IMG/VR virus record: IMGVR_UViG_3300031565_000266
Coordinates: 1-28,565 of that record
From: a virus
Length of the DNA stretch: 28,565 nucleotides
Strand: one strand, 5' to 3'
Of this stretch, positions 1 through 28,565 are shown piece after piece; the first letter of the stretch is position 1; the number at the start of each line of letters is the position of its first letter. The translations under genes were made by a program, and so were the position numbers. The notes beneath the pieces were generated by a model, which made no database searches, was not told the origin of the DNA, and worked only from the letters and a program-made list of their open reading frames with translations.

Positions 1-1
1 G

Positions 2-301
2 CCACACGTAGCGTTTCATTTCGTCCACGTTCAGGCCGTGGTGGCGGCAATAGTTTGCGATGGCGGACCAGGGAATGCGCTGGATGATGGCTTTTTTGTC
101 TTTGAACAGTGACGGCGGCCGTTCCGTTTGCAGGTCCATGTAGGCGGTCCAGTACAGGCTGAAACGCGGGTCCACGGTCGGCGGTTTTTCGATGACTTCG
201 GGAACGGCCAGGCCGCGTTCGGCATAGCTTGCTGCGATGTGGCCCTGGTCTTTCGGTTGGTGTCCGCGCAGGCCGTGGCGCAGCACCGCTGTCAGTTTCC
301 C
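2..301 (-). CDS. -1 frame extension of the tail assembly chaperone (gpGT-like), partial at left edge
   Basis: Ninety-eight codons stay open without a stop in the -1 frame from the end of the upstream chaperone gene to the window edge. The frame has no convincing start of its own, and its protein-like sequence includes VLRHGLRGHQPKDQG and MDLQTERPPSLFKDKKAIIQ. Its entry point is the heptamer GGGAAAC at 301-295, so I read it as the T part of a G-GT fusion made by -1 frameshifting. In lambda and many siphophages the fusion recruits the tail tube protein to the tape measure protein, and the G:GT ratio controls tail assembly. Position after the tail tube gene fits. The C terminus lies outside the window. 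The fusion would exceed 240 residues. Confidence 0.82.
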
Positions 302-720
302 ACCGCTTCCTGTTCGAAGACTTTGCGAAAATTGGTCCAGGAATACGCCTTCGCTTTGATCTGCCGCGCCAATAGCGGCAAATCGTTCAGGACTTTTTCC
401 ACGTTCTTCGGCGTGCATTTCAGTGCCTTGCCTGCCTGGTCTGTGATGCCTTCCCAATCCGAAACAATCGCGTGCGCGAACAGGCGGTGTTCCATTTGCG
501 GGTCGGCCAACATGTCCATGACGTTTTCCAGGCTGCCGCGTTCTTTCACAGATTTGGCCGCTTCGGTCGCCATGAACTTTCGAATTTCAGGATTCAGGTC
601 ACGGTCTGCACTGCGCACCCGTATCCTGCAAATTTCCTGTCCCTGGTGTTCGATTGCGCACCAAATTCCGTCAGTGACGGCCGATTCGCTTGTTTCGAAC
701 AGTTCATAAACACTTGTCAT
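292..720 (-). CDS. Tail assembly chaperone (lambda gpG-like short product)
   Basis: This 142-residue, charged, soluble protein has no signal peptide or membrane segment. It lies directly after the tail tube gene and before the expected tape measure gene, which is the standard place of the G/GT chaperone. It ends on a slippery heptamer that allows a -1 fusion into the downstream frame. That arrangement, more than sequence similarity, supports the call. The ATG at 720 is preceded by GAGGG at good spacing, inside a small hairpin at 726-742 with a GTGAG loop. Chaperones of this type are absent from the mature virion and bind the tape measure during tail polymerisation. Confidence 0.8.
   Translation of the reverse strand: MTSVYELFETSESAVTDGIWCAIEHQGQEICRIRVRSADRDLNPEIRKFMATEAAKSVKERGSLENVMDMLADPQMEHRLFAHAIVSDWEGITDQAGKALKCTPKNVEKVLNDLPLLARQIKAKAYSWTNFRKVFEQEAVGN
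295..301 (-). promoter_or_regulatory. -1 ribosomal frameshift slippery heptamer GGGAAAC
   Basis: On the minus strand the zero-frame codons read GTG GGA AAC TGA. The heptamer G-GGA-AAC has the X-XXY-YYZ form, and a tandem -1 slip re-pairs on GGG AAA. The zero-frame stop follows immediately. The -1 frame then runs CTG ACA GCG GTG with no stop to the window edge. Lambda uses the related GGGAAAG between G and T. I did not identify a downstream stimulatory structure. Confidence 0.85.
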
Positions 721-725
721 TTTTG

Positions 726-742
726 GAATCCCTCACAGATTC
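726..742 (-). promoter_or_regulatory. Start-associated GTGAG-loop hairpin before the tail chaperone
   Basis: On the minus strand the arms GAATCT and GGATTC flank the loop GTGAG. They form six pairs, one of them U-G. The Shine-Dalgarno GAGGG spans loop and stem, and the hairpin ends 5 nt before the ATG. It belongs to the family also seen at 5394, 10747, 17919, 24889 and 27733. Confidence 0.6.
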
Positions 743-750
743 GCGGGGTT

Positions 751-2307
751 CTACCTCACGAAGTTAAGACGCTGCACGCTGATGGTGTAGCCGAAATCAG
801 GCGACAAAATTGCCTGGTATGTTGCCGGGATCGTTACGTCCTGATTTTTGCCAGGAACGTCAGGCGCACCGCCGGCGAATTTGATGCGTGGCATGTCGAA
901 CAACATGGCCCGGCCGTTGCTGTCCACGACGCTGATGTCCAGCGACGTTTCGGTGTTGGCCAGGATTTGGTCCAGGATTGCTTTGTTGTCGAAGTACGTT
1001 CGCAGCGTGCCAGTGACACCGACTTCGCCGACACCGATGCCGGCAGCGCCGAACACGCCGACCGCTTCCTGGCGGCGCAGGTTGTTGGTCAGGTCGATGC
1101 TGGCTTCCAGCACGAAATTGACGCCAGCGGTGTCAATCGGGTCCACACCGCGGCCCAGGCGGCCCACGTTGCTGCTGGTGTTATAAACGGGATTTGTGGC
1201 TGCTGCGGCGTCAATGGGTGCCGTTTCGTACAGTGCCGGCGCAATGGTGCCCACGTGCGCGTTGCCCGTTTCCACCTGGACGGCGCTGGAAAACCCGAAA
1301 AACGTCACCGCGCCGGTCATAATCGACTGCGGTGCCAGGGCGATCGAAAAATTGTTCAGGGCCATGCCCAGGAACAGTTCGCGCAACACTTCCACCTGGT
1401 CTTCGAATCGGCGTTCCAGTGCGAACTGGTGGGCTGTCACGGCCTGGGCACCATTTTCCACGTGGTCGCCGAAATAGATTTCCACGCGTTCGGCTGCTGC
1501 GGCGCCCAAAACCATGCCGGTTTGCGCGGCGAATGTCAGGGTGCGCGCCGTGGTGTCGATGGCTTTGATGCGCGCCCACACGTTGTTGCCGGCTTCCGCT
1601 GTTGGCCAGCGTGCCATTTTCACCCACATGCCAATGGTCAGCAGGGTGTCCACGTTGCCGCCGCGGGCATTGTCGAACATGGTGTTGTTGTTGGCGACCG
1701 TCAGCACGATTTCACCGGATGCCGGCGCTGCCATCGTGATGTCACCGACTGCACCAGGAATCAGGCCGCACACTGAAAGTTTGGTTTCAGCGCCGGACGT
1801 CCAGGCAGCCAGCACGGCATTGGTGCCCGCGGTATGTGGCACGACCGTCAGCAAATCGACGGTGATGACCGTCAGTTCATAGACGCCATCGCCCTGGTCG
1901 CCTGTTGCCAGGTCATCCAGTCGCAGGATGTGCCCGACTTCGTAGTCGTCGCCTTCGCCGGCAGCCAGTTGGATTTGCCCGGCTGCGAACGACACGATGT
2001 CCGTGGCGCCCAGGTTGAATTTGTTTTGCGAATACAGCGACATCATTGCCGATTCGATCAGCAGGTCGAACGCACCGAATGACATTTCGAAATTCGTGTC
2101 GCCGCCGGCTTCGCCGCCCACCAGGATCAGGTCGCTGGTTTGTCGATCGCTGCGGATTTCTTCCGACACCACTGTGGTCGGTGTGAATGCCAGCCCAGGC
2201 GCCCCGGTATAACGCAGCGCGGTCAGCGTCAATTGTGGGTTCAGGATTGGCGCCGATTTTGCCGGTGACCTGGCAATGCGGACGCCTACGCGATTAGTGT
2301 CAGACAT
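751..2307 (-). CDS. Major tail tube protein (Phage_tube_2-like)
   Basis: This 518-residue protein probably polymerises into the tail tube. The N-terminal part (about residues 45-95) contains SEEIRSDRQTSDLILVGGEA followed by a GAFDLLIES segment, typical of siphophage tube proteins of the Phage_tube_2 group. The segment HQFALERRF...LFLGMALNNFSIAL...ITGAVTFFGF (about 290-340) is the matching second half. The usual length is nearer 300, so the extra residues (roughly 100-280) look like an inserted domain. The start is ATG with AAAGGGGAA 5 nt upstream. It lies between the tail terminator and the chaperone gene, as expected. The family assignment is from memory of motifs. Confidence 0.85.
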   Translation of the reverse strand: MSDTNRVGVRIARSPAKSAPILNPQLTLTALRYTGAPGLAFTPTTVVSEEIRSDRQTSDLILVGGEAGGDTNFEMSFGAFDLLIESAMMSLYSQNKFNLGATDIVSFAAGQIQLAAGEGDDYEVGHILRLDDLATGDQGDGVYELTVITVDLLTVVPHTAGTNAVLAAWTSGAETKLSVCGLIPGAVGDITMAAPASGEIVLTVANNNTMFDNARGGNVDTLLTIGMWVKMARWPTAEAGNNVWARIKAIDTTARTLTFAAQTGMVLGAAAAERVEIYFGDHVENGAQAVTAHQFALERRFEDQVEVLRELFLGMALNNFSIALAPQSIMTGAVTFFGFSSAVQVETGNAHVGTIAPALYETAPIDAAAATNPVYNTSSNVGRLGRGVDPIDTAGVNFVLEASIDLTNNLRRQEAVGVFGAAGIGVGEVGVTGTLRTYFDNKAILDQILANTETSLDISVVDSNGRAMLFDMPRIKFAGGAPDVPGKNQDVTIPATYQAILSPDFGYTISVQRLNFVR

Positions 2308-2334
2308 GAGACTTTCCCCTTTGAATGGTCAGCA

Positions 2335-5454: not shown

Positions 5455-5967
5455 TCAAAAACCATCCGGGTCGCCGGTGATCGCCTGAATGGCCGATCTG
5501 ATGCGCTGTTTTCGTTCGCGCAGACGTTCTTTCGATCCGAGCATTTCGTCTTTGACCAGGCGGCCGACCGTGCCGGACGGTTCGGCGTCGATCAATACGG
5601 TGAAACGGTCGATGGCGGCGTCAATGTTGTCGCGTTCATCCCGCAGTTCGATCAGCACCGCGGATTCGATGGCCGGCACGGATTCAGCCAGGCCGGTGAT
5701 GTTCACCTGCAAGGCGTCCCACAGTTCCAGGGCCACGGCACTGCCCAGGGCCACAATTTGGTTTCGCCATTGCGCGTATGTGTCGGCATTGGTTTGGCCC
5801 AGGCGGTTGTATTCCACGGCCAGCGAGTCGATCCAGGCGACTGCCTGGGCGTTGGTGAAATTCGAAACCAGCACCGTGCGAATGGCATCAGCGAAATCGC
5901 CTTTGTTCAGGGCGTTGTCCAACAGCACGGCGTCCACGCCGGCTTCGTATGCGTCACGAATTGTCAT
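5455..5967 (-). CDS. Hypothetical helical protein, 170 aa
   Basis: The protein is largely helical and acidic, starting MTIRDAYEAGVDAVLLDNALN and ending in a charged helical segment (EMLGSKERLRERKQRIRSAIQAITG). There is no signal peptide, membrane segment or cysteine. Its ATG overlaps the stop of the 893-aa fibre-like gene as TAATG, and CCGTGAGG, a relative of the GTGAG motif, serves as ribosome binding site. Genes immediately after a fibre sometimes encode assembly helpers; that is inference only. Confidence 0.6.
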   Translation of the reverse strand: MTIRDAYEAGVDAVLLDNALNKGDFADAIRTVLVSNFTNAQAVAWIDSLAVEYNRLGQTNADTYAQWRNQIVALGSAVALELWDALQVNITGLAESVPAIESAVLIELRDERDNIDAAIDRFTVLIDAEPSGTVGRLVKDEMLGSKERLRERKQRIRSAIQAITGDPDGF

Positions 5968-8648
5968 TATGCGAACCTCACGGAAACCAACAGCACCCGA
6001 TTCGCCGCCGGCAATGCGCCGCTGGCCGAAATCGTGCCGTTTATTGTGAACCAGCCGGTGTTGTCCACCGTGCTGGTGATGGACATGACCAGGAACGCGG
6101 AACTGCTGCCACTTTCCTGGATGTAAATTTGATCACCGGACGCCAGGGCCGCCAGGATGTTTTGCGCATCGCCGCCGGCGTCAGTGAACTGGTCAACATA
6201 TAGGGCCGTGACGCTGGCCGGCGTTGCGTTGTTGAATCGCAGGGCGCCGGCGCCTGGATCGGCTGCGCCGGTGGCGGTCCTGAATTTCCAGTTGCCCGAA
6301 ATCAGGCCGGCATTCGTCACCCTTTCGATGATGCGCCACCTGTCCGTGCCGGCGTCGTCATACCAAATTTCGACCGTTTCACCAGGCTGCAAAACGATGT
6401 TCTGGCCGTTGGACGATGCGAAACGGTTGGCCGCCAGGCTGGCAGCGTCCTGGTCGGTCAGGGTGATGTTGAACGCGCCGATGTTCACCAGGCGGATGGT
6501 GTCGCCGTCCTGGCCGAATCCGAACGCGACGTCGATGCCGGTGATGTTGTAGTCGGCATCCGTGTCCAGCCGGACAATCGTGCGCTGGTTGTTGTTGGCC
6601 GCCAACTGATAATTGTTCTGATTCGCCGTGATTTGCGCCGGCGATTCGCTGCCCAGGTTCACGCGGCCGTCGATGCGGGCGCGACCATTGACACGCAATG
6701 CCTGCACGCGTGTGGCGCCGAATGATGGCATTTGCGCCACGTATAGGTTGGACAGGTCGTCGATGGTGCCGCCCGACAGCAACACCGCCGGGCTGTTGAT
6801 TTTGAACGCCTGCAAATCATTGACCGTTTGGCCATTGACGTCGATGCTGCCGCTGGCAGTCCACAGCACATCCGAGTATTCGCCGCCGATCTGCACCTGG
6901 CGCAAATTCGCGCCCGCGAACTGCACGAACCAATTGTTGGAATTCGGTGTGGGCGCCGTGCCGCCGAACACGACCGCGTTGACATTGAACCCCAGGCCGA
7001 TGTCCAGGGCGCCGCCGTCATCCTGTTCGAATGTCCATTCGTCGGCGGCGGTCGGTCGCAAATATAGCGGGTTTGCCGCCAGGCCGAACTGCGTGGAAAA
7101 CAGAAACGCGGACTGCGCAGTGTCCCAACCGATGGCGATGTCGGCGGCTGCGCTGGTGGCGCCCAATTTCAGGAACACGTTGTCGTTCAGGTGGACGTGG
7201 CCGCCGAAATCGGATTGCGCCGTGCCCGTATGATTGATAAACAAGCCGGAATTCATCGCGGAATTGATGCCGCGCAGCGTGGTGATGCCAGCGGCGGGGA
7301 TGTTTGGAATGTCCAAACAGTTAAGCGTGCCGATCGTACCACCTGCTATCAGGCCCGGCGATCTGGCCGCGAAATAATTGACCGCTGTGATCGACGCCGT
7401 GCCAACCGTGGCATCCACGGAACAAAACGCGAAAAATGTTTCGTGCGATGCGAGCGTGAAATTTCCAGCCAGGTTCGGGCCTACGCGTAGTTGCGATCGC
7501 ACGGCATTTTGCTGGCTGCCGGTTCTGGACCCGCCAAGTGAGCCGGTTCGCAATATCGGCTGGTTGATCATGGTGTATATCGGGCCAGTGTTCGCGCCCT
7601 GGCACGTGACGGTGGTGCCCTGATTGAACAGCGACTGCGTGTTGAACAGGTTGCCCTGTTCGGTCAGGATTAGTTCGCCGCGCCAATCCACAAAGTTTGG
7701 CGCGGTGTCGTTGCCGATTCCGCCGCCGCCTGGCACGATGCTGTTTATCGTGCTGCCCCACAACAAACACGCATTGCCCACCTGGGTGCGCGTTCGTCCG
7801 TCCGGGTAAAATTCCACGCTACCGTAGCCGTCCACCACTTCGTTGATCGCCAGCAAACGGTTGCCCAATGCCTGGCCATAGTTGATTTGCAGCGGCTGGA
7901 CATTCAGGAACGCCGTGCCGGCACCGTCTTCCAGCACCACCATCGCGCCAATGGGCGCCGCGTTGTCGCGGATGGTGAACGGTTCGGCAGGCGCCAGCGT
8001 GATGTGCAGGGCGCCGCCTGTTGCGGCATACGCCTGCTGCACGTTCACCGCGTGCGGGTTTGCCATGCTGGCCAGGTGGGCATCCAGGGCTGCGTGGCTG
8101 TTCACGCCGATGTTGGCGATGGCCGTGTGGTCAATACTGGCCTGCGTGAAATGGATGCTGGCGTCGGCGATGTGGTTGGCCGAATTCGTCAGCGCCGTGT
8201 CGATCTGCGGGTGCGTGTTCACGCCGATGTTGGTCAGCAGCGTGTGATCGGTCACGCTGATGTTAGGAACGATGGTCCAATTGCCGGCGAAAATTGTGGT
8301 GGACGGTGTATTGACCACCGCGACCAGGATGTCGCCGACAATGAACGGTTGGCTGTCCACTGTGCCGGCCACGGTCGTGTTGAACCAGTCGCCCTGGTTC
8401 AGTGCTGCCGGGAACACGCCGCCGGATGCGTCGAACGGCCCAACATATTCGCCAAAACTCTGCACTGTTTCCAGCGTCCAGCCCAGGCTGTTGCGCACGT
8501 AGCTGCTGCCGTTGTTGGGTGCGTCAGCCCAATGGATCGTTGTGTCCGCGATGTGCGTGGCGAACGAACCGGCCAGGGCCGTGATCGCGGCCTGGTTGGC
8601 TGCGATTTGGCTGGCGTCCAGCAGTGGCGTGGCGTTGACGCTGCCCAC
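5967..8648 (-). CDS. Large fibre-like virion protein, 893 aa
   Basis: This is the longest gene in the window, with a GTG start. Residues about 1-60 (QIAANQAAITALAGSFATHIADTTIHW) and about 135-210 contain repeated helical HIAD-x-(T/S)IH and GVN(T/S)H motifs, ending in HLASMANPHAV, a hallmark of phage fibre shafts. The centre is rich in Gly, Asn and Thr, suggesting beta-structure. The C-terminal third (DADYNITGIDVAFGFGQDGDTIRLVNIG...PGETVEIWYDD) resembles trimeric fibre or appendage domains. It lies between the capsid and neck genes rather than at the tail tip, so it could be a head fibre or a tail-side receptor-binding fibre. Which one cannot be decided here. Confidence 0.78.
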   Translation of the reverse strand: MGSVNATPLLDASQIAANQAAITALAGSFATHIADTTIHWADAPNNGSSYVRNSLGWTLETVQSFGEYVGPFDASGGVFPAALNQGDWFNTTVAGTVDSQPFIVGDILVAVVNTPSTTIFAGNWTIVPNISVTDHTLLTNIGVNTHPQIDTALTNSANHIADASIHFTQASIDHTAIANIGVNSHAALDAHLASMANPHAVNVQQAYAATGGALHITLAPAEPFTIRDNAAPIGAMVVLEDGAGTAFLNVQPLQINYGQALGNRLLAINEVVDGYGSVEFYPDGRTRTQVGNACLLWGSTINSIVPGGGGIGNDTAPNFVDWRGELILTEQGNLFNTQSLFNQGTTVTCQGANTGPIYTMINQPILRTGSLGGSRTGSQQNAVRSQLRVGPNLAGNFTLASHETFFAFCSVDATVGTASITAVNYFAARSPGLIAGGTIGTLNCLDIPNIPAAGITTLRGINSAMNSGLFINHTGTAQSDFGGHVHLNDNVFLKLGATSAAADIAIGWDTAQSAFLFSTQFGLAANPLYLRPTAADEWTFEQDDGGALDIGLGFNVNAVVFGGTAPTPNSNNWFVQFAGANLRQVQIGGEYSDVLWTASGSIDVNGQTVNDLQAFKINSPAVLLSGGTIDDLSNLYVAQMPSFGATRVQALRVNGRARIDGRVNLGSESPAQITANQNNYQLAANNNQRTIVRLDTDADYNITGIDVAFGFGQDGDTIRLVNIGAFNITLTDQDAASLAANRFASSNGQNIVLQPGETVEIWYDDAGTDRWRIIERVTNAGLISGNWKFRTATGAADPGAGALRFNNATPASVTALYVDQFTDAGGDAQNILAALASGDQIYIQESGSSSAFLVMSITSTVDNTGWFTINGTISASGALPAANRVLLVSVRFA

Positions 8649-9720: not shown

Positions 9721-10719
9721 TTAGGCTTCGGTCGTGCGCAGCCGGGCAATTTTGATTTGCTTACGTTCGGGAAATACGCGATTCCAGGACGTTGCTGCTG
9801 CCAGGTTGTTCGCCGTTGCGGCATTGGACGGTCCACCGTTCGCTGCCGTGCCGATGTAGGCATGGCCAGCAGGGTGCAGAATCCACTGCACGCGACTGGT
9901 CAGTGTTTCCGTGCCGGCGCCATTGCCCTGCAATGGGATGCGGTCGGTTTCCACTGGCACTTTCGGCGTGCCAACACCCAACTGAATCGCACCAGGTCCG
10001 AAAATCCACGAATCATAGTCCTGGGTCGAAACCGGCAGGCCATCGTCGATAATCACTTCCAGGTCGCCGAACCGGGCGATGCGCGTGTCGTTGTCGCTGT
10101 CCCGAATGAAATCAATCAGGTTGTTTTTGCGCATTTTCGCGTACACGACCGAATGCACCATCAGCATCGAAAAGTCTTCCAGGCTGTCGCCGGCTGTGGC
10201 CACTGAGTCGATCAGGGCTTCCGCACTGAAATCAGTGACGCCAGCAGTGAACGCGCCGGTGATGTCGTTGGTGTAGTCGCCCGCATCGTTCGCGGTGTTG
10301 TCTGCGAAAACTCCATTCATGGTTGCAACGAATGCCGCCTGGGCGCGTCGTGACCAATAGGTCGCGACTTTGTTGGCGATTGCTGTGGCTGGATCGGAAC
10401 CGGCCAGGGCTGCCGACAGGTCGGCCGTTTTCCATGACTGGTTGCGTGACAGCCGGACCTGCACTTCCTGGTTCGACGTCAGTTTGAACGGAACGGACGG
10501 CGTTTCTGAATCGTCGCCAACCAGGTCGGCATCATCCGCCAGGTCGTTCCATGATGGTGAATTGAAAGTCAGGCCGCCGCCTGCCAGGTCGCCATCCATT
10601 TGTCCATTGCGAACCGCGGCGCCCGACTGAATCAGCCGGCTTTTTTGTTCCGTGGTCAGTTGAACGTATGGGACGAAAATTTCCGGGACTACTACGTCCG
10701 CGATCTGAACTAATGCCAT
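9721..10719 (-). CDS. Major capsid protein (HK97-fold, Gp13-like coat protein)
   Basis: The 332-residue protein begins MALVQIADVVVPEIFVPYVQ, followed by LTTEQKSRLIQSGAAVRN, the standard N-terminal pattern of one coat-protein branch. The region ANKVATYWSRRAQAAFVATMNGVFADN corresponds to the spine-helix part. The segment FSMLMVHSVVYAKMRKNNLIDFIRDSDNDTRIARFGDLEVIIDDGLPV is a typical P-domain pattern, and HPAGHAYIG lies near the C terminus. The gene order scaffold-capsid, the strong ribosome site AAAGGGGAA and the terminator directly downstream all fit a highly expressed capsid gene. No protease gene is seen. Confidence 0.9.
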   Translation of the reverse strand: MALVQIADVVVPEIFVPYVQLTTEQKSRLIQSGAAVRNGQMDGDLAGGGLTFNSPSWNDLADDADLVGDDSETPSVPFKLTSNQEVQVRLSRNQSWKTADLSAALAGSDPATAIANKVATYWSRRAQAAFVATMNGVFADNTANDAGDYTNDITGAFTAGVTDFSAEALIDSVATAGDSLEDFSMLMVHSVVYAKMRKNNLIDFIRDSDNDTRIARFGDLEVIIDDGLPVSTQDYDSWIFGPGAIQLGVGTPKVPVETDRIPLQGNGAGTETLTSRVQWILHPAGHAYIGTAANGGPSNAATANNLAAATSWNRVFPERKQIKIARLRTTEA

Positions 10720-12835: not shown

Positions 12836-14303
12836 TGGCGTCGTCGTTCAGGTTGTCCACGTTGTCCTGGTTGCCTGGTTCGCCACTGGCATCGGCCGCA
12901 CCTGGTTCGCCCAACAGTGTGGTGTCGTCCACTGCCGGTTCGTCGGCAATTTCGTCCTGTTCTTCGTCGAACGTCAGGCTGGTCAGGTCGCCTTTGCGCA
13001 TCCTGGCGTGGATGCTGCGAATGGACAGCGGTGCGCCGCGTGACTTCGCGTTCATCAGGCCCAACAGTTCCGCCGCCGGCATGGATTCGTCGATGAAATC
13101 GGTGTTGGCCGTGACTGACACATCGTCAGGATTGTCGCCGACCCATTCCGCGCAAATTTTCAGGGCCATTTCCAGGCCAGCGGCACTGGTTTCGGCGATG
13201 TTCACCAGCGTGGCCGTGCGTGCTGCCACTTTGATTTTCAGGGTTTCCGCCGCTTCCGCGCCTTTGCCGGACATCAGTTGCAGCCCGTAATTGTTCGCCC
13301 GTTCGAAGTCGTTTTCCTGCGCACTGCGCATTTCCGGGATGCCCAGGCTGTCGGCGCCGATGAATTTGGCGTCACCGTTTTCGTTCGGGATGTTGATGTG
13401 CGCGCCGGCGCCCACGATCAGTTTTTGCGTCGGGTCGTCCGGGTCGATGTTTTCGCCGATGATGACCAGTGTGTCCTGGCCTTGCATGAACAGTGCCTGC
13501 CGGTAGTCGGCATCGCCGCGATATATCGTCAGCGCCAGCCTGGCCAGGCCCAACAGTGGGATGTCGCCCAATTCAGGCGTCAGGTCCGCGTCGTTGATGA
13601 AAACGAACGGGATTTTGTCCAGGGTCGTGCCCTGGATGTTTGGCATGATGTCGGCCAACGGGACGCCATTGTCTTCGACGGTCACCGTATAAACGCCATT
13701 GATGACACGCAGTGCCCTGAATTTGTCTTTGTGTTCCCAGGTGAAACCGTCGCGGACGTTCCTGCCTTCGTCCAGTGTCACCAGGCTGATTTTGCGTTCG
13801 GCCGTTTCAGCGTCGAACACTTCGTCGTCCCAATTGATGATTTGCCGCGCACGATAGTCCACCAAATAGGGCAGGTTCCTGGATTTGTCCACGTCAGCGA
13901 ACAGCCCGGTGCGGCCGAACATCAGTTGCGTCAGTTGCAGCCGGCGAATCAGTGCGGTCAGTGGTTCGCCGCGTGCGGTCGCCGTTTTTTCCATGTCAGC
14001 CAGGCCAGGCGATAGGGTGATCACTGGCGGTTCGCGGTTCATCACGCCCACCAGGGCGTTGGCGGTGTCTTTCAAAATGGTGGGATAATTGGCCCGGATC
14101 AAATAGGACGCATACAGCGCCGCGCCTTCCTGGTTGGTTCCCATGCCCAGGGCACGCTGGCCCGATGTGGTTGGCAGGTACACGGTGCTGCGTTCTTTGA
14201 TGCGCCGTTCGCCTGCGTGGCCGTCTTCCATGACGATCCAGTCGGGTTCTATTTTCGAAAATTCGGGATGCCTGGATTGGATGTCTGACTGTGCGTTCGC
14301 CAT
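12822..14303 (-). CDS. Portal protein (DUF4055 type)
   Basis: The start is the ATG at 14303, overlapping the terminase TAA as TAATG, with AAAGGGG upstream; the open frame before it is not used. The 493-residue protein forms the dodecameric DNA entry channel. Typical features are an N-terminal YLPTTSGQRALGMGTNQEGAALYASYLIRANYP, then NALVGVMNREPPVI, a central PFVFINDADLTPELGDIPLLGLARLALTIYRGDADYRQALFMQGQDTLVI, and an acidic disordered C terminus. This matches DUF4055 portals. By eye the whole gene contains no GAG or CTC triplet in any frame. Confidence 0.9.
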   Translation of the reverse strand: MANAQSDIQSRHPEFSKIEPDWIVMEDGHAGERRIKERSTVYLPTTSGQRALGMGTNQEGAALYASYLIRANYPTILKDTANALVGVMNREPPVITLSPGLADMEKTATARGEPLTALIRRLQLTQLMFGRTGLFADVDKSRNLPYLVDYRARQIINWDDEVFDAETAERKISLVTLDEGRNVRDGFTWEHKDKFRALRVINGVYTVTVEDNGVPLADIMPNIQGTTLDKIPFVFINDADLTPELGDIPLLGLARLALTIYRGDADYRQALFMQGQDTLVIIGENIDPDDPTQKLIVGAGAHINIPNENGDAKFIGADSLGIPEMRSAQENDFERANNYGLQLMSGKGAEAAETLKIKVAARTATLVNIAETSAAGLEMALKICAEWVGDNPDDVSVTANTDFIDESMPAAELLGLMNAKSRGAPLSIRSIHARMRKGDLTSLTFDEEQDEIADEPAVDDTTLLGEPGAADASGEPGNQDNVDNLNDDANGNQ

Positions 14304-15823
14304 TAGTGTGCCCCTTTGATTCCGCCCGACGTCACGCCGCCTTTGTGTTTCAGGCATCGGTGATATGCACGTGCAAATCCGTCCGCCTGGTCTTTATAGT
14401 CGCCGGTGGGAAACGCGACCATTTCTTCGATCCAGTCCCGGTTCCAGGGTCCGCGCACGATATAGACGTTTCCCGCTTCGGCCTGCGCGGCCGGCGCGTC
14501 CTGGCGTGTTTCCTTGCTACCGGATTCGGGCGAATAGTACACGCGAAACCGTGGAAACATGCCGGCAAGGCTTTCGGCCTGCGATTTTCCCGCCTGGCCT
14601 GGGTCTTGCGGAAAGTCGATAATCACACCCTTTCCGTCCCGGTCAGCCACACTTTTCATTTTTGTTTCAACTGTCAGTGGCGAACCGCGGAACCGTTCAC
14701 AGTCTTCCACGTAGAATTTAGCACCAACACGTCGCACGCGCACGCCTGCCGTGTAGGCGCCGGCGCCCTTGTTCTGTTCTTCGGTGGCAGCCAAATCCCA
14801 ACCACGACACACGACGCCGCCTTTGGGCACATCGCCGGCGTCCACGAATTTGCCGCCGAACCATTGCAATTTGTACATGCCACCGCCGCGTGGCACAGGT
14901 CGCTGTTGCAGTTGGCCGGCCGTTGCATAGGCACCCAATTCCAGCGCCAGCCTGGTCACGCGTTCTTCCGGGAACAGTTCCGGCCATAGCATTTGGCCGT
15001 CTTTGGTGCGGAAATCGCCGGGCAGTTTGCGCCCGGATTTCAGTTTGATAGACACCGTGACGTGCGGGTGCTTTTTTTCATAGCGTGCCGGCAGGCACAG
15101 GTGCACCAGGTCCGCCTGGTCAGCCAGCATTTCGCCGGCGTAGTCGCGGGAATGTAGGCGCTGCATCATCACGCACACGCCGCCGTTTTTCGATCGCACG
15201 CGGGTCGGCAATGCCATGCGGATGCGCCGCACGACTTCGTTGCGGTTGTCGTCACTTTCGGCCTGTTCCACGTTGTGCGGGTCGTCCAGGATCACAAAGT
15301 CGCCGCCTTCGCCCATGATGCCGCCGACGCTGGTGCTGAACCGATAGCCGCCATGTTCGTTTTCGAATCGGCTTTTGACGTCCTGGCCTTTGCGGATCGA
15401 CATTTTGGTGTCGCGCAGTGCGCCGACCACGTTGCCCCATCGCTGCTGATACCAGGGCGACCGAATCAGTTTTCGGGTTTTGTCGGCATCGCGCAGTGCC
15501 AGGTCGCCGCGGTATGACGTGGCCATGAATCGTTTGCCGGCGCGTTCCTTTTTGGTCCAGCAGTACGCGTTCAGCAGCACCGACACCGACAGGCTTTTCA
15601 TGTGACCAGGTGGCACGTTCAGCAGCAGGCGCGGGATTTCACCATCGACGAATGCCTGCAAATACTCGGACTGAATTTCCAGGTGCCGGCCATCGACAAA
15701 TGGCACCGGGTCCAGCCAGGGCCATGCCTCACTGGTGAACAGGTGCAGGTCGTCTTCGCAGTATTCCGCCGTCCTGGCTTCGAAATAGGACAGGGTTTCC
15801 GTGTTAAGTGGCAGCGCCCGCAC
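14303..15823 (-). CDS. terL: Terminase large subunit
   Basis: This 506-residue packaging motor has a Walker A-like PPGHMKS at residues 71-77, Walker B DFVILDDPH at 175-183 and a C-terminal RNase H-like nuclease with GWDLAAT (Asp343), IIDFPQDPGQAGK (Asp403) and KDQADGFARA (Asp478/Asp481). It translocates DNA through the portal and cuts concatemers. The start is GTG at 15823, overlapping the small subunit by 20 bp. The proline-type Walker A with H instead of the usual residue is common in this terminase group. Both ATPase and nuclease residues look intact. Confidence 0.95.
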   Translation of the reverse strand: MRALPLNTETLSYFEARTAEYCEDDLHLFTSEAWPWLDPVPFVDGRHLEIQSEYLQAFVDGEIPRLLLNVPPGHMKSLSVSVLLNAYCWTKKERAGKRFMATSYRGDLALRDADKTRKLIRSPWYQQRWGNVVGALRDTKMSIRKGQDVKSRFENEHGGYRFSTSVGGIMGEGGDFVILDDPHNVEQAESDDNRNEVVRRIRMALPTRVRSKNGGVCVMMQRLHSRDYAGEMLADQADLVHLCLPARYEKKHPHVTVSIKLKSGRKLPGDFRTKDGQMLWPELFPEERVTRLALELGAYATAGQLQQRPVPRGGGMYKLQWFGGKFVDAGDVPKGGVVCRGWDLAATEEQNKGAGAYTAGVRVRRVGAKFYVEDCERFRGSPLTVETKMKSVADRDGKGVIIDFPQDPGQAGKSQAESLAGMFPRFRVYYSPESGSKETRQDAPAAQAEAGNVYIVRGPWNRDWIEEMVAFPTGDYKDQADGFARAYHRCLKHKGGVTSGGIKGAH

Positions 15824-16307
15824 AGGCTTTTCGCAACAGGTGGGTGATCGTGACCACTTCGGCTTTGGTCAGATTCGACAGGTCCGGGATGGCCAGCGCC
15901 GCACCAGCCACTGGTGACATGCTGCCGTCCGGGCTGACCTGTTCCACACGCGTGATTTGCTTATATGACGGATGCCTGGCTTTCAGTGTCAATTCCAGCA
16001 GGCGGTCGGACTTCGTGACCACTGCGCGCATTCGCGTCCGCTTGTCGCCGCCCTTGATTTCCAAATAGGGTTTCATTTCGACTTCGCCTTCCACGCCGCG
16101 TTTGATGCCGGTGGCTTCCAGTTTGTCCAGGAAAATCATTTCCGCATCGTCCCATGCCAGTGCGAAGTCGGCGTCCCTGGCTTTCAGTTCATACCAGGAT
16201 TTCCGGGAAATCTCGCCGGCGATGGCTGCCTGGGTGACGCTGCCGCTGGCTTCCAGTTTTTTCAGGAACATTTCGCGGCGGCGTTTGGTGATGGACTTGC
16301 GGCGCAC
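15804..16307 (-). CDS. terS: Terminase small subunit
   Basis: The 167-residue protein has a basic N terminus (MRRKSITKRRREMF) and a helix-turn-helix (residues about 20-50: SGSVTQAAIAGEISRKSWYE), followed by LKARDADFALAWDDAEMIFLDKLEATGIKRGVEG. This arrangement is typical of small terminases that recognise the packaging site and stimulate the large subunit. The GTG start directly abuts the upstream TAA, with GGCGGGA as ribosome site. The four-iteron region 17103-17173 is a candidate binding site for it. Confidence 0.86.
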   Translation of the reverse strand: MRRKSITKRRREMFLKKLEASGSVTQAAIAGEISRKSWYELKARDADFALAWDDAEMIFLDKLEATGIKRGVEGEVEMKPYLEIKGGDKRTRMRAVVTKSDRLLELTLKARHPSYKQITRVEQVSPDGSMSPVAGAALAIPDLSNLTKAEVVTITHLLRKACAGAAT

Positions 16308-16490
16308 TTATCGGTCCCGCCTGTGGTGCCGTGAATTGGGACAGGTGGCGAAGTGACTGACGTGGCCTTTTTCGACGTCGAACAGTTTGCCGCCATCGCG
16401 CACGCTGGAACAGTCCACCGGCATTTTCGTGCCCTGTTTGGTCATCATCCAAACGATCGGCGCATTGCATGTTCTGCACTGGCTGGCCAT
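16308..16490 (-). CDS. Small zinc-ribbon-like protein, 60 aa
   Basis: The start is the ATG at 16490, overlapping the upstream stop as TGATG. The product begins MASQCRTCNAPIVWMMTKQG, has a middle TKMPVDCSSV, and ends HFATCPNSRHHRRDR. One CxxC pair plus later Cys and His residues suggest a single zinc site. Similar small proteins (C-x-x-C...MPVD...H-F-A-T-C-P) are common in phages beside terminase or replication genes, with unknown role. Confidence 0.72.
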   Translation of the reverse strand: MASQCRTCNAPIVWMMTKQGTKMPVDCSSVRDGGKLFDVEKGHVSHFATCPNSRHHRRDR

Positions 16491-17047
16491 CAGTTGAAAT
16501 CCTGGTTGGTGAACTGCCCACACGTTGGACAGTGGAATCCGTCGCCGCCGCTGCCGGATGTGTCAGGCACGTCATCGTCGCGGTCCATTGTTGCCCAGGC
16601 GTCACGGTCGCGTTGCGTGAATCCAGTCAGTTCGACGTCGAAACCCTGCGCCACCAGGTCGTCGAATTCGACCGCCAGCGTGGCGAAATCCCATTCGGAC
16701 AGTTCGGCCAGGCGGTTGTCGGCCAGGACATACGCCTGCGCCTGTTCGTCGGTCAGGTGCGCCAGGTCTATGGTCGGCACTTCGATGTTCATGTATTCGG
16801 CCGCCAGGCAGCGCGCATGTCCGGCCAGGATGTCGTCACCGCGCACCAGCACAGGATTGGTGAATCCGAACTGCTGGATGGACCGGGCGATGCGTTGGAT
16901 TTGTTCGGGTTCGTGCGTCTTCGCGTTCTGCGGGTACGGCACCAGGTCGCCTGGCTTGCGGTACACGATCACGGCCGGCGGCAAACGCGTGTCGATGTTG
17001 TCGGGTCGGTCGTCTTCGTCAGGTGTTTCGGTCGGTTGGTCAGCCAT
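16490..17047 (-). CDS. ParB/sulfiredoxin-like domain protein
   Basis: The start is the ATG at 17047 with AAAAGGGG upstream. In the 185-residue protein, residues about 28-113 form a ParB N-terminal-like domain: VPYPQNAKTHEPEQIQRIAR, then FGFTNPVLV, DDILAGHARCLAAEY (the G-H-x-R motif) and LADNRLAELSEWD. Phage homologues often precede terminase genes or fuse to methyltransferases; here no methyltransferase follows. The C terminus has CPTCG (Cys173, Cys176). Roles may include CTP or DNA binding in packaging or modification. The adjacent iterons make a site-specific DNA-binding role worth considering. Confidence 0.82.
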   Translation of the reverse strand: MADQPTETPDEDDRPDNIDTRLPPAVIVYRKPGDLVPYPQNAKTHEPEQIQRIARSIQQFGFTNPVLVRGDDILAGHARCLAAEYMNIEVPTIDLAHLTDEQAQAYVLADNRLAELSEWDFATLAVEFDDLVAQGFDVELTGFTQRDRDAWATMDRDDDVPDTSGSGGDGFHCPTCGQFTNQDFN

Positions 17048-17101
17048 CACGGCCCCTTTTCGCATCACGCAGGTCGGTTTTGTCACCGTGTCACGCCCTG
17101 G

Positions 17102-17221: not shown

Positions 17222-17608
17222 TCACACCAGGCGGATTTCGATGCCGAATATGGCTTCGACCACCGCCCGTTTGAATCGCGCAGCAGTGTCATCGAACCCT
17301 TTGACGTCTTCCACGATCTGTTCGCCGGTGCGTTTGTCCTGGTATCGGAAGTCCGCCCGCCACGAACAGCGCCGCCCGTTCGGATACCGCTTTGACCTGA
17401 TTTTGATGTCCACGCCGGTCAGCCTGCCATCGACCAGGGCCTGGATGGTCAGCGGATATTTGGGCTGCAATTCGATGTTGGCAATTTCGCCGGCACGTTC
17501 CAGCAGGATCAGTTCCAGGTATCGGTCGCGTTCACGCTGCGAATCGAATTTGTGGCCGTTGGCTTCGCATTTTTCGTTTCCGAATTTGCGCGTGGATCGC
17601 CTGGTCAC
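17222..17608 (-). CDS. DUF1064-type putative endonuclease
   Basis: The 128-residue protein has the DUF1064 layout: FDSQRERDRYLELILLERAG (residues about 21-40), IANIELQPKYPL, then WRADFRYQDK (Asp86) and IVEDVKGF (Glu100, Asp101, Lys103), the acidic and ExK-like core of a small PD-(D/E)XK-like nuclease. Phage homologues are thought to act in recombination or packaging. The GTG start overlaps the upstream stop as GTGA. It is the last gene before the iteron region. Confidence 0.82.
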   Translation of the reverse strand: MTRRSTRKFGNEKCEANGHKFDSQRERDRYLELILLERAGEIANIELQPKYPLTIQALVDGRLTGVDIKIRSKRYPNGRRCSWRADFRYQDKRTGEQIVEDVKGFDDTAARFKRAVVEAIFGIEIRLV

Positions 17609-24100: not shown

Positions 24101-24162
24101 CAGTCGGTCCATCCAAAACCGCAATCCGGGCAGGAATGCGTGGTCACTTCCTGCGGCGCCAT
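24100..24162 (-). CDS. 20-aa microprotein with CxxC knuckle
   Basis: The frame is short: MAPQEVTTHSCPDCGFGWTD. Its ATG overlaps the upstream stop as TGATG and its TGA overlaps the downstream ATG as TGATG, leaving no spare base. The CPDCG knuckle resembles half of a zinc ribbon. It might be a translation-coupling leader, a real microprotein, or the detached N terminus of the downstream 108-aa Cys-rich protein. Confidence 0.42.
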   Translation of the reverse strand: MAPQEVTTHSCPDCGFGWTD

Positions 24163-24884
24163 CACCGCACCGCCGTCGAAACGTCTTCGAAATAGCGGAT
24201 GCCGTCCACCGTCTTCGCTGATTCCATCGCCCTGGACAGGCCGTCGATGTCGCCCTGGTGCACGGAAATGATGCCGGAAGGCAGCCGGCCAGCAGCCACC
24301 GCAGCGCACACCGCTTTCACGTCAACCACTTCCGCTTTCCAGGTTTTCTTCGTGGACACGGATGCCCTGGTGCCGCGCACAGGCGCGGCCGTGGCCTTCG
24401 GTGCTTCGATCGCCTGGGAACCTGCGACGTCAGCCTGGCGTTCCAGTTCGACCGCCATTTCGTCGGCGCTGTTGTGCGTGGCCACGCGTGTGGCTTCGGC
24501 CGCTTTGCGCAGGCGGTCTTCGCGTGCGCGGGCTTCCTGTTCTTCCTTCTGACGCGCCTGCTGGCGGATCAATTCCTGGCGCCTGGCGTAGTCGTTCATT
24601 TTTTTGGTGCAGGCGTTGATCACCACGTCGATTTTGTCCCGCGGCACTTTGAACAGTGCGTCGATGTCGCCGGACACTTTTTTCAACGGACCCACCAGCG
24701 ACAGGCGTTTGTCTTCCAGTTTGCGGCGGTAGTGGTTCAGGTCTTTTTTCAGGTCGCCGACTGTGCCGAATGTGTCGTCGTCGTGGATTTCGATGCCGTC
24801 CACCGTGGCGGCGTAGGCTTCGGATTGTTTGGCGATTGGCAGCAGTTCGCTGACAGCCAGTTCATGCGTTTGTTGCGTGTCCAT
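24162..24884 (-). CDS. Coiled-coil early protein next to ERF, 240 aa
   Basis: Residues about 45-135 are a long charged helix (DLKKDLNHYRRKLEDKRLSL, VGPLKKVSGDIDALFKVPRD, RQQARQKEEQEARAREDRLR). The C-terminal domain (VRGTRASVSTKKTWKAEVVD, VKAVCAAVAAGRLPSG) is compact. Phages often carry such a protein beside an ERF or RecT annealing protein; nuclease inhibitor or recombination helper roles are suggested, not shown. The ATG is served by GAGGG inside a GTGAG-loop hairpin (24889-24901) and follows a terminator after ERF, so its synthesis may depend on read-through or processing. Confidence 0.72.
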   Translation of the reverse strand: MDTQQTHELAVSELLPIAKQSEAYAATVDGIEIHDDDTFGTVGDLKKDLNHYRRKLEDKRLSLVGPLKKVSGDIDALFKVPRDKIDVVINACTKKMNDYARRQELIRQQARQKEEQEARAREDRLRKAAEATRVATHNSADEMAVELERQADVAGSQAIEAPKATAAPVRGTRASVSTKKTWKAEVVDVKAVCAAVAAGRLPSGIISVHQGDIDGLSRAMESAKTVDGIRYFEDVSTAVR

Positions 24885-24888
24885 TGGT

Positions 24889-24901
24889 ATCCCTCACGGA
24901 T
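24889..24901 (-). promoter_or_regulatory. Start-associated GTGAG-loop hairpin before the 240-aa gene
   Basis: Arms ATCC and GGAT (perfect, four pairs) enclose the loop GTGAG. The hairpin ends 4 nt before the ATG at 24884, and the ribosome site GAGGG is shared between loop and 3' arm. Confidence 0.55.
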
Positions 24902-24953: not shown

Positions 24954-24958
24954 AAAAA

Positions 24959-26813: not shown

Positions 26814-26820
26814 GGTGTTG

Positions 26821-26830
26821 TCCCTCACAG
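26821..26830 (-). promoter_or_regulatory. GTGAGGGA element before the 41-aa gene (weak stem)
   Basis: CTGTGAGGGA lies 7 nt before the ATG and matches the other start-associated elements in the loop sequence, but the arms pair at only two positions. It functions at least as a ribosome binding site. Confidence 0.5.
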
Positions 26831-27058: not shown

Positions 27059-27396
27059 GTCTTCGGTGGCAGTGTGCGGTGAATTGTTCGGTGAATTTTT
27101 GGCGTTTCGAACAGTTCCACCTGGTTCGGGTTTCGATCCAGGCCCCACATCACAGCGACCAGTTCGGCCGAATCAGGCAGGTCATCCAGGCCGTCATTGT
27201 TATCGACCAGGCACACGTCGCCATCCAAATCGACCCACACGCGCAGGCCGAATTCATGGCACGCCAGCATCAGTTCGCCGATCGTGGTGGCTGGTCCCGG
27301 ATAGGCCCGCCAGGTGGTTGCGTTCGCAGGGTCTTCGATTCGCAGCGAATACGGGATTTCGTCAGGCCGTTCGCCTGGTTTGTTGTTGTCGTTCAT
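27055..27396 (-). CDS. Hypothetical acidic protein, 113 aa
   Basis: The start is taken as the ATG at 27396 with GGAG 12 nt upstream; an ATG ten codons earlier (27426) is possible. The product has DEIPYSLRIEDPANATTWRA, then VWVDLDGDVCLVDNNDGLDD and a C-terminal basic tail (IHRTIHRTLPPKT). It is acidic and strand-rich in the middle. No family is recognised. It overlaps the end of the HTH gene by 35 bp. Confidence 0.6.
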   Translation of the reverse strand: MNDNNKPGERPDEIPYSLRIEDPANATTWRAYPGPATTIGELMLACHEFGLRVWVDLDGDVCLVDNNDGLDDLPDSAELVAVMWGLDRNPNQVELFETPKIHRTIHRTLPPKT

Positions 27397-27730
27397 CGTT
27401 TGCAGTCTCCAATAGTTGCATCGCATGGTGCAGGTGTTCCGCCGCCATTGTGGCGTCGGGTGTCAGTTCATACAGCCACGGCCGTTTTCCGGTTCGGCCC
27501 TGGCCGTCTTTCATGCCGTTGATTCGGTCGCGGCGTTCTTCCGCTGTCAATGGTGCGCGGCTGAACGGGTCGAATTTGCGCCTGGTGGCCAGTTGCAGTT
27601 CCACCAAATCGCACAGCCGGCTGGCCACAGTGGATTCGTTCACGCCAGTGGCCAGGCTGACCAGGCTGACGGTCGCCGGCTGCATTTCGCGCAGGGCGAT
27701 CATGGTTTCAAATAGTGCGGTTCGGATCAT
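27362..27730 (-). CDS. Winged-helix or HTH early protein, 122 aa
   Basis: Residues about 17-50 (QPATVSLVSLATGVNESTVA, SRLCDLVELQLATRR) form a helix-turn-helix with a following wing-like strand (KRPWLYELTPDATMAAEHLH). The layout resembles MarR- or replication-type winged helices. The ATG at 27730 has GAGGGGAA in a 6-bp GTGAG-loop hairpin (27733-27749). Being the second leftward gene after the XRE regulator, it may be a transcription regulator or replication protein. Confidence 0.68.
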   Translation of the reverse strand: MIRTALFETMIALREMQPATVSLVSLATGVNESTVASRLCDLVELQLATRRKFDPFSRAPLTAEERRDRINGMKDGQGRTGKRPWLYELTPDATMAAEHLHHAMQLLETANDERQQQTRRTA

Positions 27731-27732
27731 GG

Positions 27733-27749
27733 GTTCCCCTCACGGAAAC
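27733..27749 (-). promoter_or_regulatory. Start-associated GTGAG-loop hairpin before the HTH gene
   Basis: Arms GTTTCC and GGGAAC form six pairs (one U-G) around the loop GTGAG. The hairpin ends 2 nt before the ATG at 27730, so its folding could hide the ribosome site GAGGGG. Confidence 0.6.
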
Positions 27750-27757
27750 GGCCGTGG

Positions 27758-28015
27758 TCACACGGCGATGATGTGGTCCCTGGTTGGTTTCTTGCGTTCT
27801 TCCCGCCGCGCATAGGTCGGATCGTAGCAGTGGGCCACCGGCACTTTGCCGCCATAGTGATCGAACAGCGCCCTGGCGGTTTGCCTGGTCGGCGCGACTT
27901 CGCCGGCTTCGATTCTATACAGCGTGGACCGATTCACGCCGATGGCATTGGCCACCTGCTGCACGGTTTGTTTCGGTTTCAGTGTTTCGCGGTGTCTTTG
28001 CAGCAGTGTTTTCAT
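27758..28015 (-). CDS. XRE-family (Cro/CI-like) regulator, 85 aa
   Basis: The start is the ATG at 28015; the open frame further upstream runs through the control region and is not used. Residues about 12-50 contain a helix-turn-helix (KQTVQQVANAIGVNRSTLYR, IEAGEVAPTRQTARALFDHY). The C-terminal part is short and basic, with no peptidase domain, so it is Cro-like in size rather than a full CI repressor. It is transcribed divergently from the rightward operon. The ATG lies at the predicted transcription start, so the mRNA is probably leaderless, and no ribosome site is visible. Confidence 0.84.
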   Translation of the reverse strand: MKTLLQRHRETLKPKQTVQQVANAIGVNRSTLYRIEAGEVAPTRQTARALFDHYGGKVPVAHCYDPTYARREERKKPTRDHIIAV

Positions 28016-28021
28016 GTGCGC

Positions 28022-28049
28022 AATGTAGCATGAAACGCGACAGCGGCAA
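28022..28049 (-). promoter_or_regulatory. Leftward extended -10 promoter of the XRE gene
   Basis: The minus strand reads TTGCCG (28049-28044), a 16-bp spacer, then TGC-TACATT with the -10 at 28027-28022. The first base 7 nt after the -10 is the A of the regulator ATG at 28015, predicting a leaderless transcript. Confidence 0.62.
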
Positions 28050-28084
28050 CAGTCCCAAAGTGTGACCGAATTCCGGCGAAATCT

Positions 28085-28098
28085 GTGACGGCCATCAC
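28085..28098. promoter_or_regulatory. Operator-like palindrome 1
   Basis: GTGACGGCCATCAC is a 14-bp palindrome with 12 matching positions. It sits in the middle of the divergent region and could bind the XRE dimer. Confidence 0.45.
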
Positions 28099-28104
28099 GC
28101 CCGG

Positions 28105-28128
28105 AAGTGTGCACCGCGTGCGACACTT
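28105..28128. promoter_or_regulatory. Operator-like palindrome 2
   Basis: AAGTGTGCAC and GTGCGACACTT are inverted copies apart from one extra base, around a CGC centre. A third half-site CAAAGTGT occurs at 28056. It could bind the XRE dimer or the 122-aa HTH protein. Confidence 0.45.
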
Positions 28129-28133
28129 TGACC

Positions 28134-28152
28134 GTGGACGCACCCTTTGGAG
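28134..28152 (+). repeat. Leader element of the rightward operon
   Basis: GTGGACGCACCCTTTGGAG precedes the ATG at 28161; its GGAG is the ribosome site. A 17/19 copy lies at 21475-21493 in the same orientation. Confidence 0.55.
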
Positions 28153-28160
28153 TCACCGAA

Positions 28161-28412
28161 ATGAACATCGAACAAGTCACCAACACCGAAATTTTCATGG
28201 AAGGCGACAGCACCATCACCGTGGAAACGCTGGTCATCGTCGAATCCATCACCCTGTGGACGCCGGAAGACGAACAGGAATTCACGCCCATGTTCGCGCC
28301 GATGTTCGCGCCCGACTACGCCGAAACGCTGGTCATCCGCGTGATCGCTGCCGCGCCGTTCATTGCGCCGGTGATCCTGGACGTGTGCGGCCGTCAAACG
28401 TGGGTGTGCTGA
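28161..28412 (+). CDS. First gene of the rightward operon, hypothetical 83 aa
   Basis: The start is the ATG at 28161 with GGAG 8 nt upstream. The product begins MNIEQVTNTEIFMEGDSTIT, is acidic and strand-rich (VETLVIVESITLWTPEDEQE), has a short repeat FTPMFAPMFAPDY, and ends DVCGRQTWVC. No known family is recognised. Its position opposite an XRE regulator is where Cro-type or early host-takeover proteins lie; function is unknown. The stop overlaps the next ATG as TGATG. Confidence 0.7.
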   Translation: MNIEQVTNTEIFMEGDSTITVETLVIVESITLWTPEDEQEFTPMFAPMFAPDYAETLVIRVIAAAPFIAPVILDVCGRQTWVC

Positions 28413-28565
28413 TGGCGACCCGATTGCGCGATCCACGCCAGGCTGAACGCCGAATCGACAGCCAGGCGGCGCCTGTGGGCCTGTGTGACGATTTGGCGCC
28501 GATGCTGGCCACTTTCCACGCCGCGGCCCTGTTCACGGTCCTGGACGCCCTGCGGCGTTCCCTGG
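28412..28565 (+). CDS. Second rightward gene, partial at right edge
   Basis: The ATG at 28412 overlaps the previous stop as TGATG. Fifty-one codons are visible: MATRLRDPRQAERRIDSQAA, then PVGLCDDLAPMLATFHAAAL and FTVLDALRRSL. The frame stays open to the window edge. Basic N terminus followed by a helical segment; function cannot be judged from this fragment. Confidence 0.68.
   Translation, partial: MATRLRDPRQAERRIDSQAAPVGLCDDLAPMLATFHAAALFTVLDALRRSL

What the first reader, a model, noticed from the sequence alone, without database searches (positions are those of the whole stretch)
1..28565. Near-complete absence of the triplet GAG/CTC on both strands and in all frames
Reading every row, I count about 45 occurrences of GAG or CTC in 28.6 kb; uniform expectation is about 890. 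In the coding span 11693-14303 (gpF-like plus portal) I see none. The loss is not only codon bias: Glu is almost always GAA and Leu CTC is missing, but GAG is also missing across codon junctions, and both strands of the same genes lack it. Many of the survivors sit in ribosome binding sites (GGAG, GAGG) or terminators. This implies selection against the DNA triplet itself, for example evasion of a host nuclease, restriction or modification system with a short GAG-containing site, or a phage-encoded process acting at GAG. No known three-base restriction site explains it.
Basis: seen in the sequence. Interest (0 to 1): 0.9.

Follow-up and report, generated by a model that had tools for sequence, protein, structure and literature searches.

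The report
Phage genome purged of triplet GAG
This bacterial virus has silently edited almost every GAG/CTC out of its DNA (44 left where 580 to 1,030 are expected) without altering its proteins unusually, and it has lost the DNA-methylating half of a protein that its unedited relatives keep, which suggests it hides from an unknown host DNA-cutting defence that reads only three bases.

Summary
GAG+CTC occur 44 times in 28,565 bases. First-order Markov expects 583; composition alone about 1,030. It is the rarest of 32 triplet pairs (o/e 0.08; next 0.42). All codon phases, both strands, non-coding DNA and all 16 flanking contexts are depleted.

Orthologous codons show silent erasure. Relatives' GAG/CTC sites are kept at 0-3%, against roughly 20-57% for most control triplets, yet residues are kept at the normal rate. 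Escapes use transitions and transversions, so no single mutation process explains it.

Depletion is lineage-specific: the window clade and a second clade (45 kb contig G015) are separated in the TerL tree by non-depleted relatives; a distant GC-44% contig (L239) is depleted too.

Every non-depleted close relative whose locus is sequenced, bar one clade, carries a ParB-methyltransferase fusion between DUF1064 and TerS. The window clade keeps only the ParB half; the G015 clade neither. The exception (L065-L071) lacks the fusion, has normal GAG and partly avoids GCAG/GAAG.

Best explanation: escape from a host restriction-type defence reading GAG, site elimination replacing methylation. Host, enzyme and order of events are unknown. 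CRISPR-PAM evasion, a phage-encoded GAG nuclease, codon bias and mutation bias fit less well.

The parts
1..28565 (.). Genome-wide depletion of GAG/CTC on both strands (44 sites; o/e 0.08 Markov, 0.04 composition)
   Evidence: Exact counts, Markov model, codon shuffles, sliding windows
16490..17086 (-). ParB-only protein (198 aa): counterpart of the ParB half of the ParB-methyltransferase fusion of non-depleted relatives; methyltransferase half absent
   Evidence: ParB-MTase HMM matched only at positions 2-159 of about 435; PF02195 weak match, PHROG ParB/DNA methyltransferase families
16308..16489 (-). Short gap before TerS where relatives have the methyltransferase domain (about 0.8 kb)
   Evidence: Synteny table; no PF01555, PF00145, PF02086, PF02384 or PF05869 match in the window record
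17222..17608 (-). DUF1064 (Holliday-junction-resolvase-like) gene, upstream marker of the locus
   Evidence: PF06356 1.7e-13; phrog_190
15804..16307 (-). Small terminase subunit (TerS), downstream marker of the locus
   Evidence: Conserved position before TerL and homology among relatives
14303..15823 (-). Large terminase subunit (TerL), used for the tree
   Evidence: PF17289 2.3e-13; tree
24893..24895 (-). Example of a surviving GAG in a Shine-Dalgarno position (CCGTGAGGGATACCAATGG) before gene 24162-24884
   Evidence: Survivor list
27739..27741 (-). Example of a surviving GAG in a Shine-Dalgarno position (CCGTGAGGGGAACCCATG) before gene 27362-27730
   Evidence: Survivor list
5977..5979 (-). 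Example of a surviving GAG in a Shine-Dalgarno position (CCGTGAGGTTCGCATAATG) before gene 5455-5967
   Evidence: Survivor list

Best explanation
SHOWN: the genome carries the footprint of selection against the 3-base duplex word GAG/CTC itself. SHOWN: this arose separately in two clades of one phage family, and in both the methyltransferase of the ParB-MTase fusion in the packaging cluster is missing. INFERRED: hosts carry a sequence-specific DNA defence (restriction nuclease, nickase, base-excision enzyme or similar) whose recognition element is the asymmetric triplet GAG. Phages with the MTase methylate their DNA and can keep the sites. Phages without it survive by removing the sites through mainly synonymous changes, tolerating a few tens, among them those used as ribosome binding sites. 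The residual sites suggest a low killing probability per site rather than one-site lethality. Confidence by step: DNA-level selection about 0.97; host restriction-type defence about 0.7; GAG as a target of the phage MTases about 0.4 (untested).
For: Depletion in all phases, both strands, non-coding DNA and every flanking context. GAG/CTC sites of relatives are kept at 0-3% while most control triplets are kept at 20-57%, with residues conserved at the average rate. Two clades separated by non-depleted relatives in the TerL tree, and a third, distant GAG-avoider L239. Thirteen non-depleted contigs have the full or partial ParB-MTase next to TerS; the window, L002 and L004 keep only ParB, and L016, L020, L022 have DUF1064 directly before TerS. 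Non-depleted relatives can carry two or three MTases. Published precedents: phages that modify their DNA avoid fewer restriction sites (PMC6286503); MTases in the packaging module of 936-type phages protect against restriction enzymes (PMC4190342).
Against: Host and enzyme are unidentified. Few independent events: two MTase losses with GAG loss. A third clade without the fusion (L065-L071) has normal GAG and only partial avoidance of other words. The record is incomplete, so another MTase could lie outside it. Published surveys find site avoidance mainly for orthodox Type II sites and not for Type I or IIG systems; a bacterial 3-base restriction site is not known to me. Whether MTase loss is cause or consequence of site loss cannot be told.
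Confidence: 0.7

Rival explanations
1. CRISPR PAM evasion: the host uses a type I CRISPR system with a GAG/CTC PAM, and the phage removed all PAMs.
For: A 3-base motif on both strands fits a PAM; PAM depletion has been reported in phages (PMC4246573, PMC12174588).
Against: Reported depletion is mild: the strongest group median is a log ratio of -0.59, o/e about 0.55 if natural log, against 0.08 here. It does not explain why the MTase is missing in both GAG-less clades. Escape needs only the targeted protospacers to change, not every PAM.
Confidence: 0.1
2. A phage-encoded nuclease or nickase cuts host DNA at GAG, and the phage spares itself by lacking the site (as chlorovirus nicking enzymes attack host DNA).
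For: Nt.CviQXI (R/AG) and Nt.CviPII (CCD) are virus-encoded short-site nickases. The window encodes nuclease-like genes such as DUF1064.
Against: No gene is shared by the two GAG-less clades and absent from GAG-rich relatives; DUF1064 occurs in both kinds. The ParB remnant is absent from the G015 clade. It does not explain the MTase pattern.
Confidence: 0.07
3. Another DNA-binding process makes GAG costly: primase or replication, packaging, a topoisomerase, or a host repressor-like protein.
For: Depletion is uniform along the genome and independent of genes.
Against: Relatives with the same core gene set (same TerS, TerL, portal, capsid) tolerate GAG freely. It gives no reason for the MTase association or for other words being avoided in other lineages.
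Confidence: 0.05
4. Mutation bias (for example deamination within CTC) or host-matched codon usage.
For: Glu is 453 GAA against 11 GAG; CTC is 2 of 645 Leu codons.
Against: Phases 1 and 2 fall to about 7% of the synonymous-shuffle expectation and non-coding DNA to 9%. The main replacement CTC to CTG is a transversion and CTT is rare (10 Leu codons). A relative at 82% TerL identity lacks the bias.
Confidence: 0.02

Closest known systems
Restriction-site avoidance in phages (survey PMC6286503)
   Same: A short DNA word is removed on both strands beyond codon and lower-order effects; related phages with DNA modification avoid fewer sites.
   Different: Known cases are mostly orthodox Type II sites, typically 4-6-base palindromes; here the word is a 3-base asymmetric triplet needing several hundred changes, and no cognate enzyme is known.
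Phage orphan methyltransferases in the packaging module (lactococcal 936-type phages, PMC4190342)
   Same: Adenine MTase beside the terminase genes, proven there to protect against restriction enzymes.
   Different: Here the enzyme is a ParB-MTase fusion of unknown target, and the interesting phages are those that lost it.
PAM depletion in phages (PMC4246573, PMC12174588)
   Same: Depletion of 2-3-base motifs on both strands.
   Different: Reported effects are mild; no link with methyltransferase loss.
Chlorovirus short-site enzymes Nt.CviQXI (R/AG) and M.CviQII (AG); PMC7019647
   Same: Recognition of a 2-3-base word that includes GAG.
   Different: Virus-encoded enzymes of algal viruses; no homologue or activity was shown here.
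Phosphorothioate systems (Ssp at CCA; gut motifs CAG, GAGC; PMC9646914, PMC11931770)
   Same: Bacterial self/non-self systems with 3-base motifs exist.
   Different: Only a fraction of motifs is modified and SspE is directed by host marks, so site removal is not an obvious escape; a GAG motif was not found.

Membership tests
Restriction-site avoidance | Word strongly under-represented beyond composition, codon usage and lower-order words | tested here: met
   o/e 0.08 Markov; phases 1 and 2 at about 7% of synonymous shuffles
Restriction-site avoidance | Both strands and non-coding DNA affected | tested here: met
   GAG and CTC on the sense strand both lost; non-coding 14 against 152
Restriction-site avoidance | Avoidance weaker in relatives that can modify their DNA | tested here: met
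   MTase-bearing relatives have GAG o/e 0.72-1.08; modification itself not measured
Restriction-site avoidance | Host encodes a restriction system reading the word | not testable with these tools
   Host unknown; genome scan gave only distant Rhizobium prophages
Orthodox Type II restriction site (palindromic, usually 4-8 bp) | Palindromic word | tested here: not met
   GAG is asymmetric and 3 bases long; every flanking context is depleted
CRISPR PAM depletion | Host CRISPR system with a GAG or CTC PAM | not testable with these tools
   Host unknown
CRISPR PAM depletion | Strength in the reported range | tested here: not met
   0.08 here against about 0.55 in the strongest reported group median (natural log assumed)
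ParB-methyltransferase fusion (anti-restriction MTase) | ParB N-terminal domain plus N6/N4 MTase domain with DPPY/SPPY and FxGxG motifs | tested here: met
   For relatives L005, L008, L013, L018
ParB-methyltransferase fusion (anti-restriction MTase) | MTase domain present in the window protein | tested here: not met
   Window 16490-17086 matches the HMM only at 2-159
Phage-encoded GAG nuclease with self-protection by site absence | A gene present in GAG-less clades and absent from GAG-rich relatives | tested here: inconclusive
   None found, but contigs may be incomplete and diverged genes may be missed

The most novel reading that the evidence does not exclude
An undescribed bacterial defence recognises the bare asymmetric triplet GAG, and sibling systems in similar habitats recognise other 3-4-base asymmetric words (GGA, GCAG/GAAG, AAGA). 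It is strong enough to drive repeated near-total removal of those words from phages that lose their methyltransferase.
Probability: 0.4. Interest if true: 0.85.

Novelty: new variant of a known kind. Interest (0 to 1): 0.74.

Why it matters
Removing a triplet from 30-45 kb means hundreds of selected, mostly silent changes, far beyond the 4-6-base avoidance known in phages. It points to a host DNA defence reading only three bases, which must itself mark or spare thousands of host sites, and for which no bacterial example was found here. The family is a natural experiment: sister lineages either keep a ParB-methyltransferase or purge the motif, and different lineages purge different words. That makes the trade-off between modification and site avoidance directly testable, and gives a way to infer unknown defence specificities from phage genomes alone.

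Tried and rejected
Codon preference as sole cause: rejected. A single mutational pathway such as cytosine deamination: rejected, transversions dominate at CTC. RNA-level selection (internal Shine-Dalgarno, RNase): rejected, sense-strand CTC is depleted at least as strongly as GAG. A longer motif containing GAG: rejected, all 16 contexts are depleted. Mosaic or assembly artefact: rejected, uniform along the contig and reproduced in other contigs. Protein cost: none detectable, residues at erased sites are kept as often as elsewhere. Phage-encoded GAG process: no candidate gene. Host identification: genome scan and tRNA search gave nothing. Another MTase family in the window or G015: PF01555, PF00145, PF02086, PF02384, PF05869 all negative. 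'Every clade without the fusion strongly avoids some triplet': not fully upheld, L065-L071 avoid GCAG/GAAG only partly. Literature searches for a GAG-specific three-base bacterial system found nothing. A first script and three searches failed for technical reasons and were repeated.
Full report
WHAT IS THERE. The window is a 28,565-base virus record with nearly all genes on the minus strand: tail tube, major capsid, Mu-F-like minor head protein, DUF4055 portal, TerL, TerS, DUF1064, ERF recombinase (capsid by homology). It has 11 GAG and 33 CTC. A first-order Markov model expects 583 (o/e 0.08), base composition about 1,030. No other triplet pair is below 0.42. No site lies in 11693-14303, and no 1-kb bin exceeds 6 against about 36 expected.

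IT IS A DNA-LEVEL EFFECT. In coding DNA, phase 1 has 6 sites against 93 and phase 2 has 11 against 160 in synonymous-codon shuffles; non-coding DNA has 14 against 152. Sense-strand GAG and CTC are both lost. All 16 NGAGN contexts in the window clade are at 0.00-0.14 of expectation, so the word is GAG and nothing longer; none of its one-mismatch neighbours is as depleted. Survivors are over-represented just before start codons (17 of 44 have an ATG 4-15 nt downstream, background 14.6%, p = 8e-5), where GAG serves as a Shine-Dalgarno element.

HOW THE SITES WENT. In codon alignments with L005 (TerL 82% identical), 3 of 229 GAG/CTC sites of L005 remain in the window, while most control triplets remain at 21-57% (in-frame GGA/TCC, driven by codon choice, is the exception at 7-8%). 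Residues at erased sites are conserved as often as average (both residues kept 0.56 against 0.56 for all adjacent pairs; in-frame residue kept 0.76). The same holds for G015 against L018 and L017. Replacements include transversions (CTC to CTG, 54 of 77) and transitions (GAG to GAA, 71 of 107). This is selection with proteins held constant, not one mutational mechanism.

LINEAGES. Among TerL relatives, the window clade (L002-L004) and a second clade (L016 in the 45.5-kb contig G015, L020-L022; o/e 0.12-0.18) lack GAG. L005, L007-L011, L013-L015, L017-L019 and L064 do not. The tree needs two separate changes. A distant contig found through its capsid, L239 (GC 44%), also avoids GAG in all phases (o/e 0.26). 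The other loci of the wider scan outside these clades show no comparable GAG loss (lowest 0.58). L005, the sister of the window clade, is mildly depleted (0.77), also in phases 1 and 2, so the pressure may predate the split. Two other contigs of the window phage reproduce the depletion, one adding 6.1 kb of tail genes with 5 GAG/CTC against 126.

THE METHYLTRANSFERASE. In most non-depleted relatives the gene order is DUF1064 > ParB-N6/N4 methyltransferase > TerS > TerL. In the window, L002 and L004 only the ParB half remains (HMM positions 2-159 of about 435). In L016, L020 and L022 DUF1064 is followed directly by TerS. Searches for five MTase families found none in the window or G015. Non-depleted phages can carry two or three MTases. 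The fused MTase domains differ between lineages: TSPPY in L005, whose nearest solved chains include the N4-cytosine enzyme PvuII; TDPPY in the others, near DpnA and CcrM among others. This suggests changing specificities. Non-depleted contigs L006, L012 and L023 are cut off before the locus.

OTHER WORDS. Lineages without the fusion avoid other short asymmetric words: L041-L047 GGA (o/e 0.18-0.31); L025-L039, L045 and L072-L073 GCAG together with TCAG, TTGG or GAAG; L065-L071 partially GCAG/GAAG/TGCA. The last clade also lacks the fusion but has normal GAG, so MTase loss does not by itself imply GAG avoidance. L025's contig G024 carries a C5 MTase. These motifs are less clear-cut than GAG and partly entangled with base composition.

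MECHANISM. The best-supported account is escape from a host restriction-type defence that reads GAG: modify the DNA (ParB-MTase) or remove the sites. The reciprocal pattern matches published observations that modifying phages avoid fewer sites (PMC6286503) and that packaging-module MTases protect phages from restriction (PMC4190342). Residual sites imply a low killing probability per site, as for a nickase or an enzyme needing several sites (inference). Not shown: the host, the enzyme, the MTase's target, and whether MTase loss came before or after site loss. No gene is shared only by the GAG-less clades, which argues against a phage-encoded GAG nuclease. PAM evasion would be far stronger than reported cases and does not explain the MTase association.

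KNOWN OR NEW. Site avoidance is known, mainly for orthodox Type II sites. A 3-base asymmetric target, hundreds of silent changes, recurrence in two or three lineages and the paired loss of a methyltransferase make this a new variant. If the cognate host system is found and truly reads three bases, it would be new in kind; chlorovirus Nt.CviQXI (R/AG) and phosphorothioate motifs such as CCA and CAG show that such short recognition is possible.

Noticed in passing
window 1-28565: CTAG is absent (0 sites, about 15 expected per strand by the second-order model) and AGCT is reduced to 10 sites (o/e 0.29 second-order; 0.06 relative to MTase-bearing relatives), so ordinary palindromic sites may be avoided as well.
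   Followed up: partly
L041-L047 (contigs around 3300005828, 3300033142): A related clade avoids GGA/TCC (o/e 0.18-0.31) in all codon phases.
   Followed up: partly
L025-L039, L045, L072, L073: Related clade avoids GCAG (o/e 0.02-0.08 of composition or background) together with TCAG, TTGG, GCAC and, in L025/L033, GAAG and AAGA.
   Followed up: partly
L208 1-9772: AAGA/TCTT is completely absent (about 9 expected per strand) in a phage with a capsid 77% identical to the window's; another asymmetric 4-base word.
   Followed up: no
L150-L153; L155-L157, L160, L161, L163: GTAC absent in these more distant phages, and ATCG also absent in L150-L152.
   Followed up: no
L245 1-10847: TAA/TTA occurs only 6 times against 39 expected, and GTAC is absent.
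   Followed up: no
L018 (contig G017, 31 kb): An MTase-bearing phage shows a milder depletion of ACT/AGT (o/e 0.50), strongest as AACT, in all phases.
   Followed up: no
L013 5906-6949, L014 2240-3196; G007, G012, G017 records: Non-depleted relatives carry extra methyltransferases: a second N6/N4 enzyme upstream of DUF1064, C5 enzymes in G007 and G012, a D12-type in G017.
   Followed up: partly
window 9721-10719: The major capsid is 58-60% identical to Pseudomonas phages PaMx25, NP1 and JG054; from general knowledge that group is kin to phages with 7-deazaguanine DNA modification, a different anti-restriction route.
   Followed up: no
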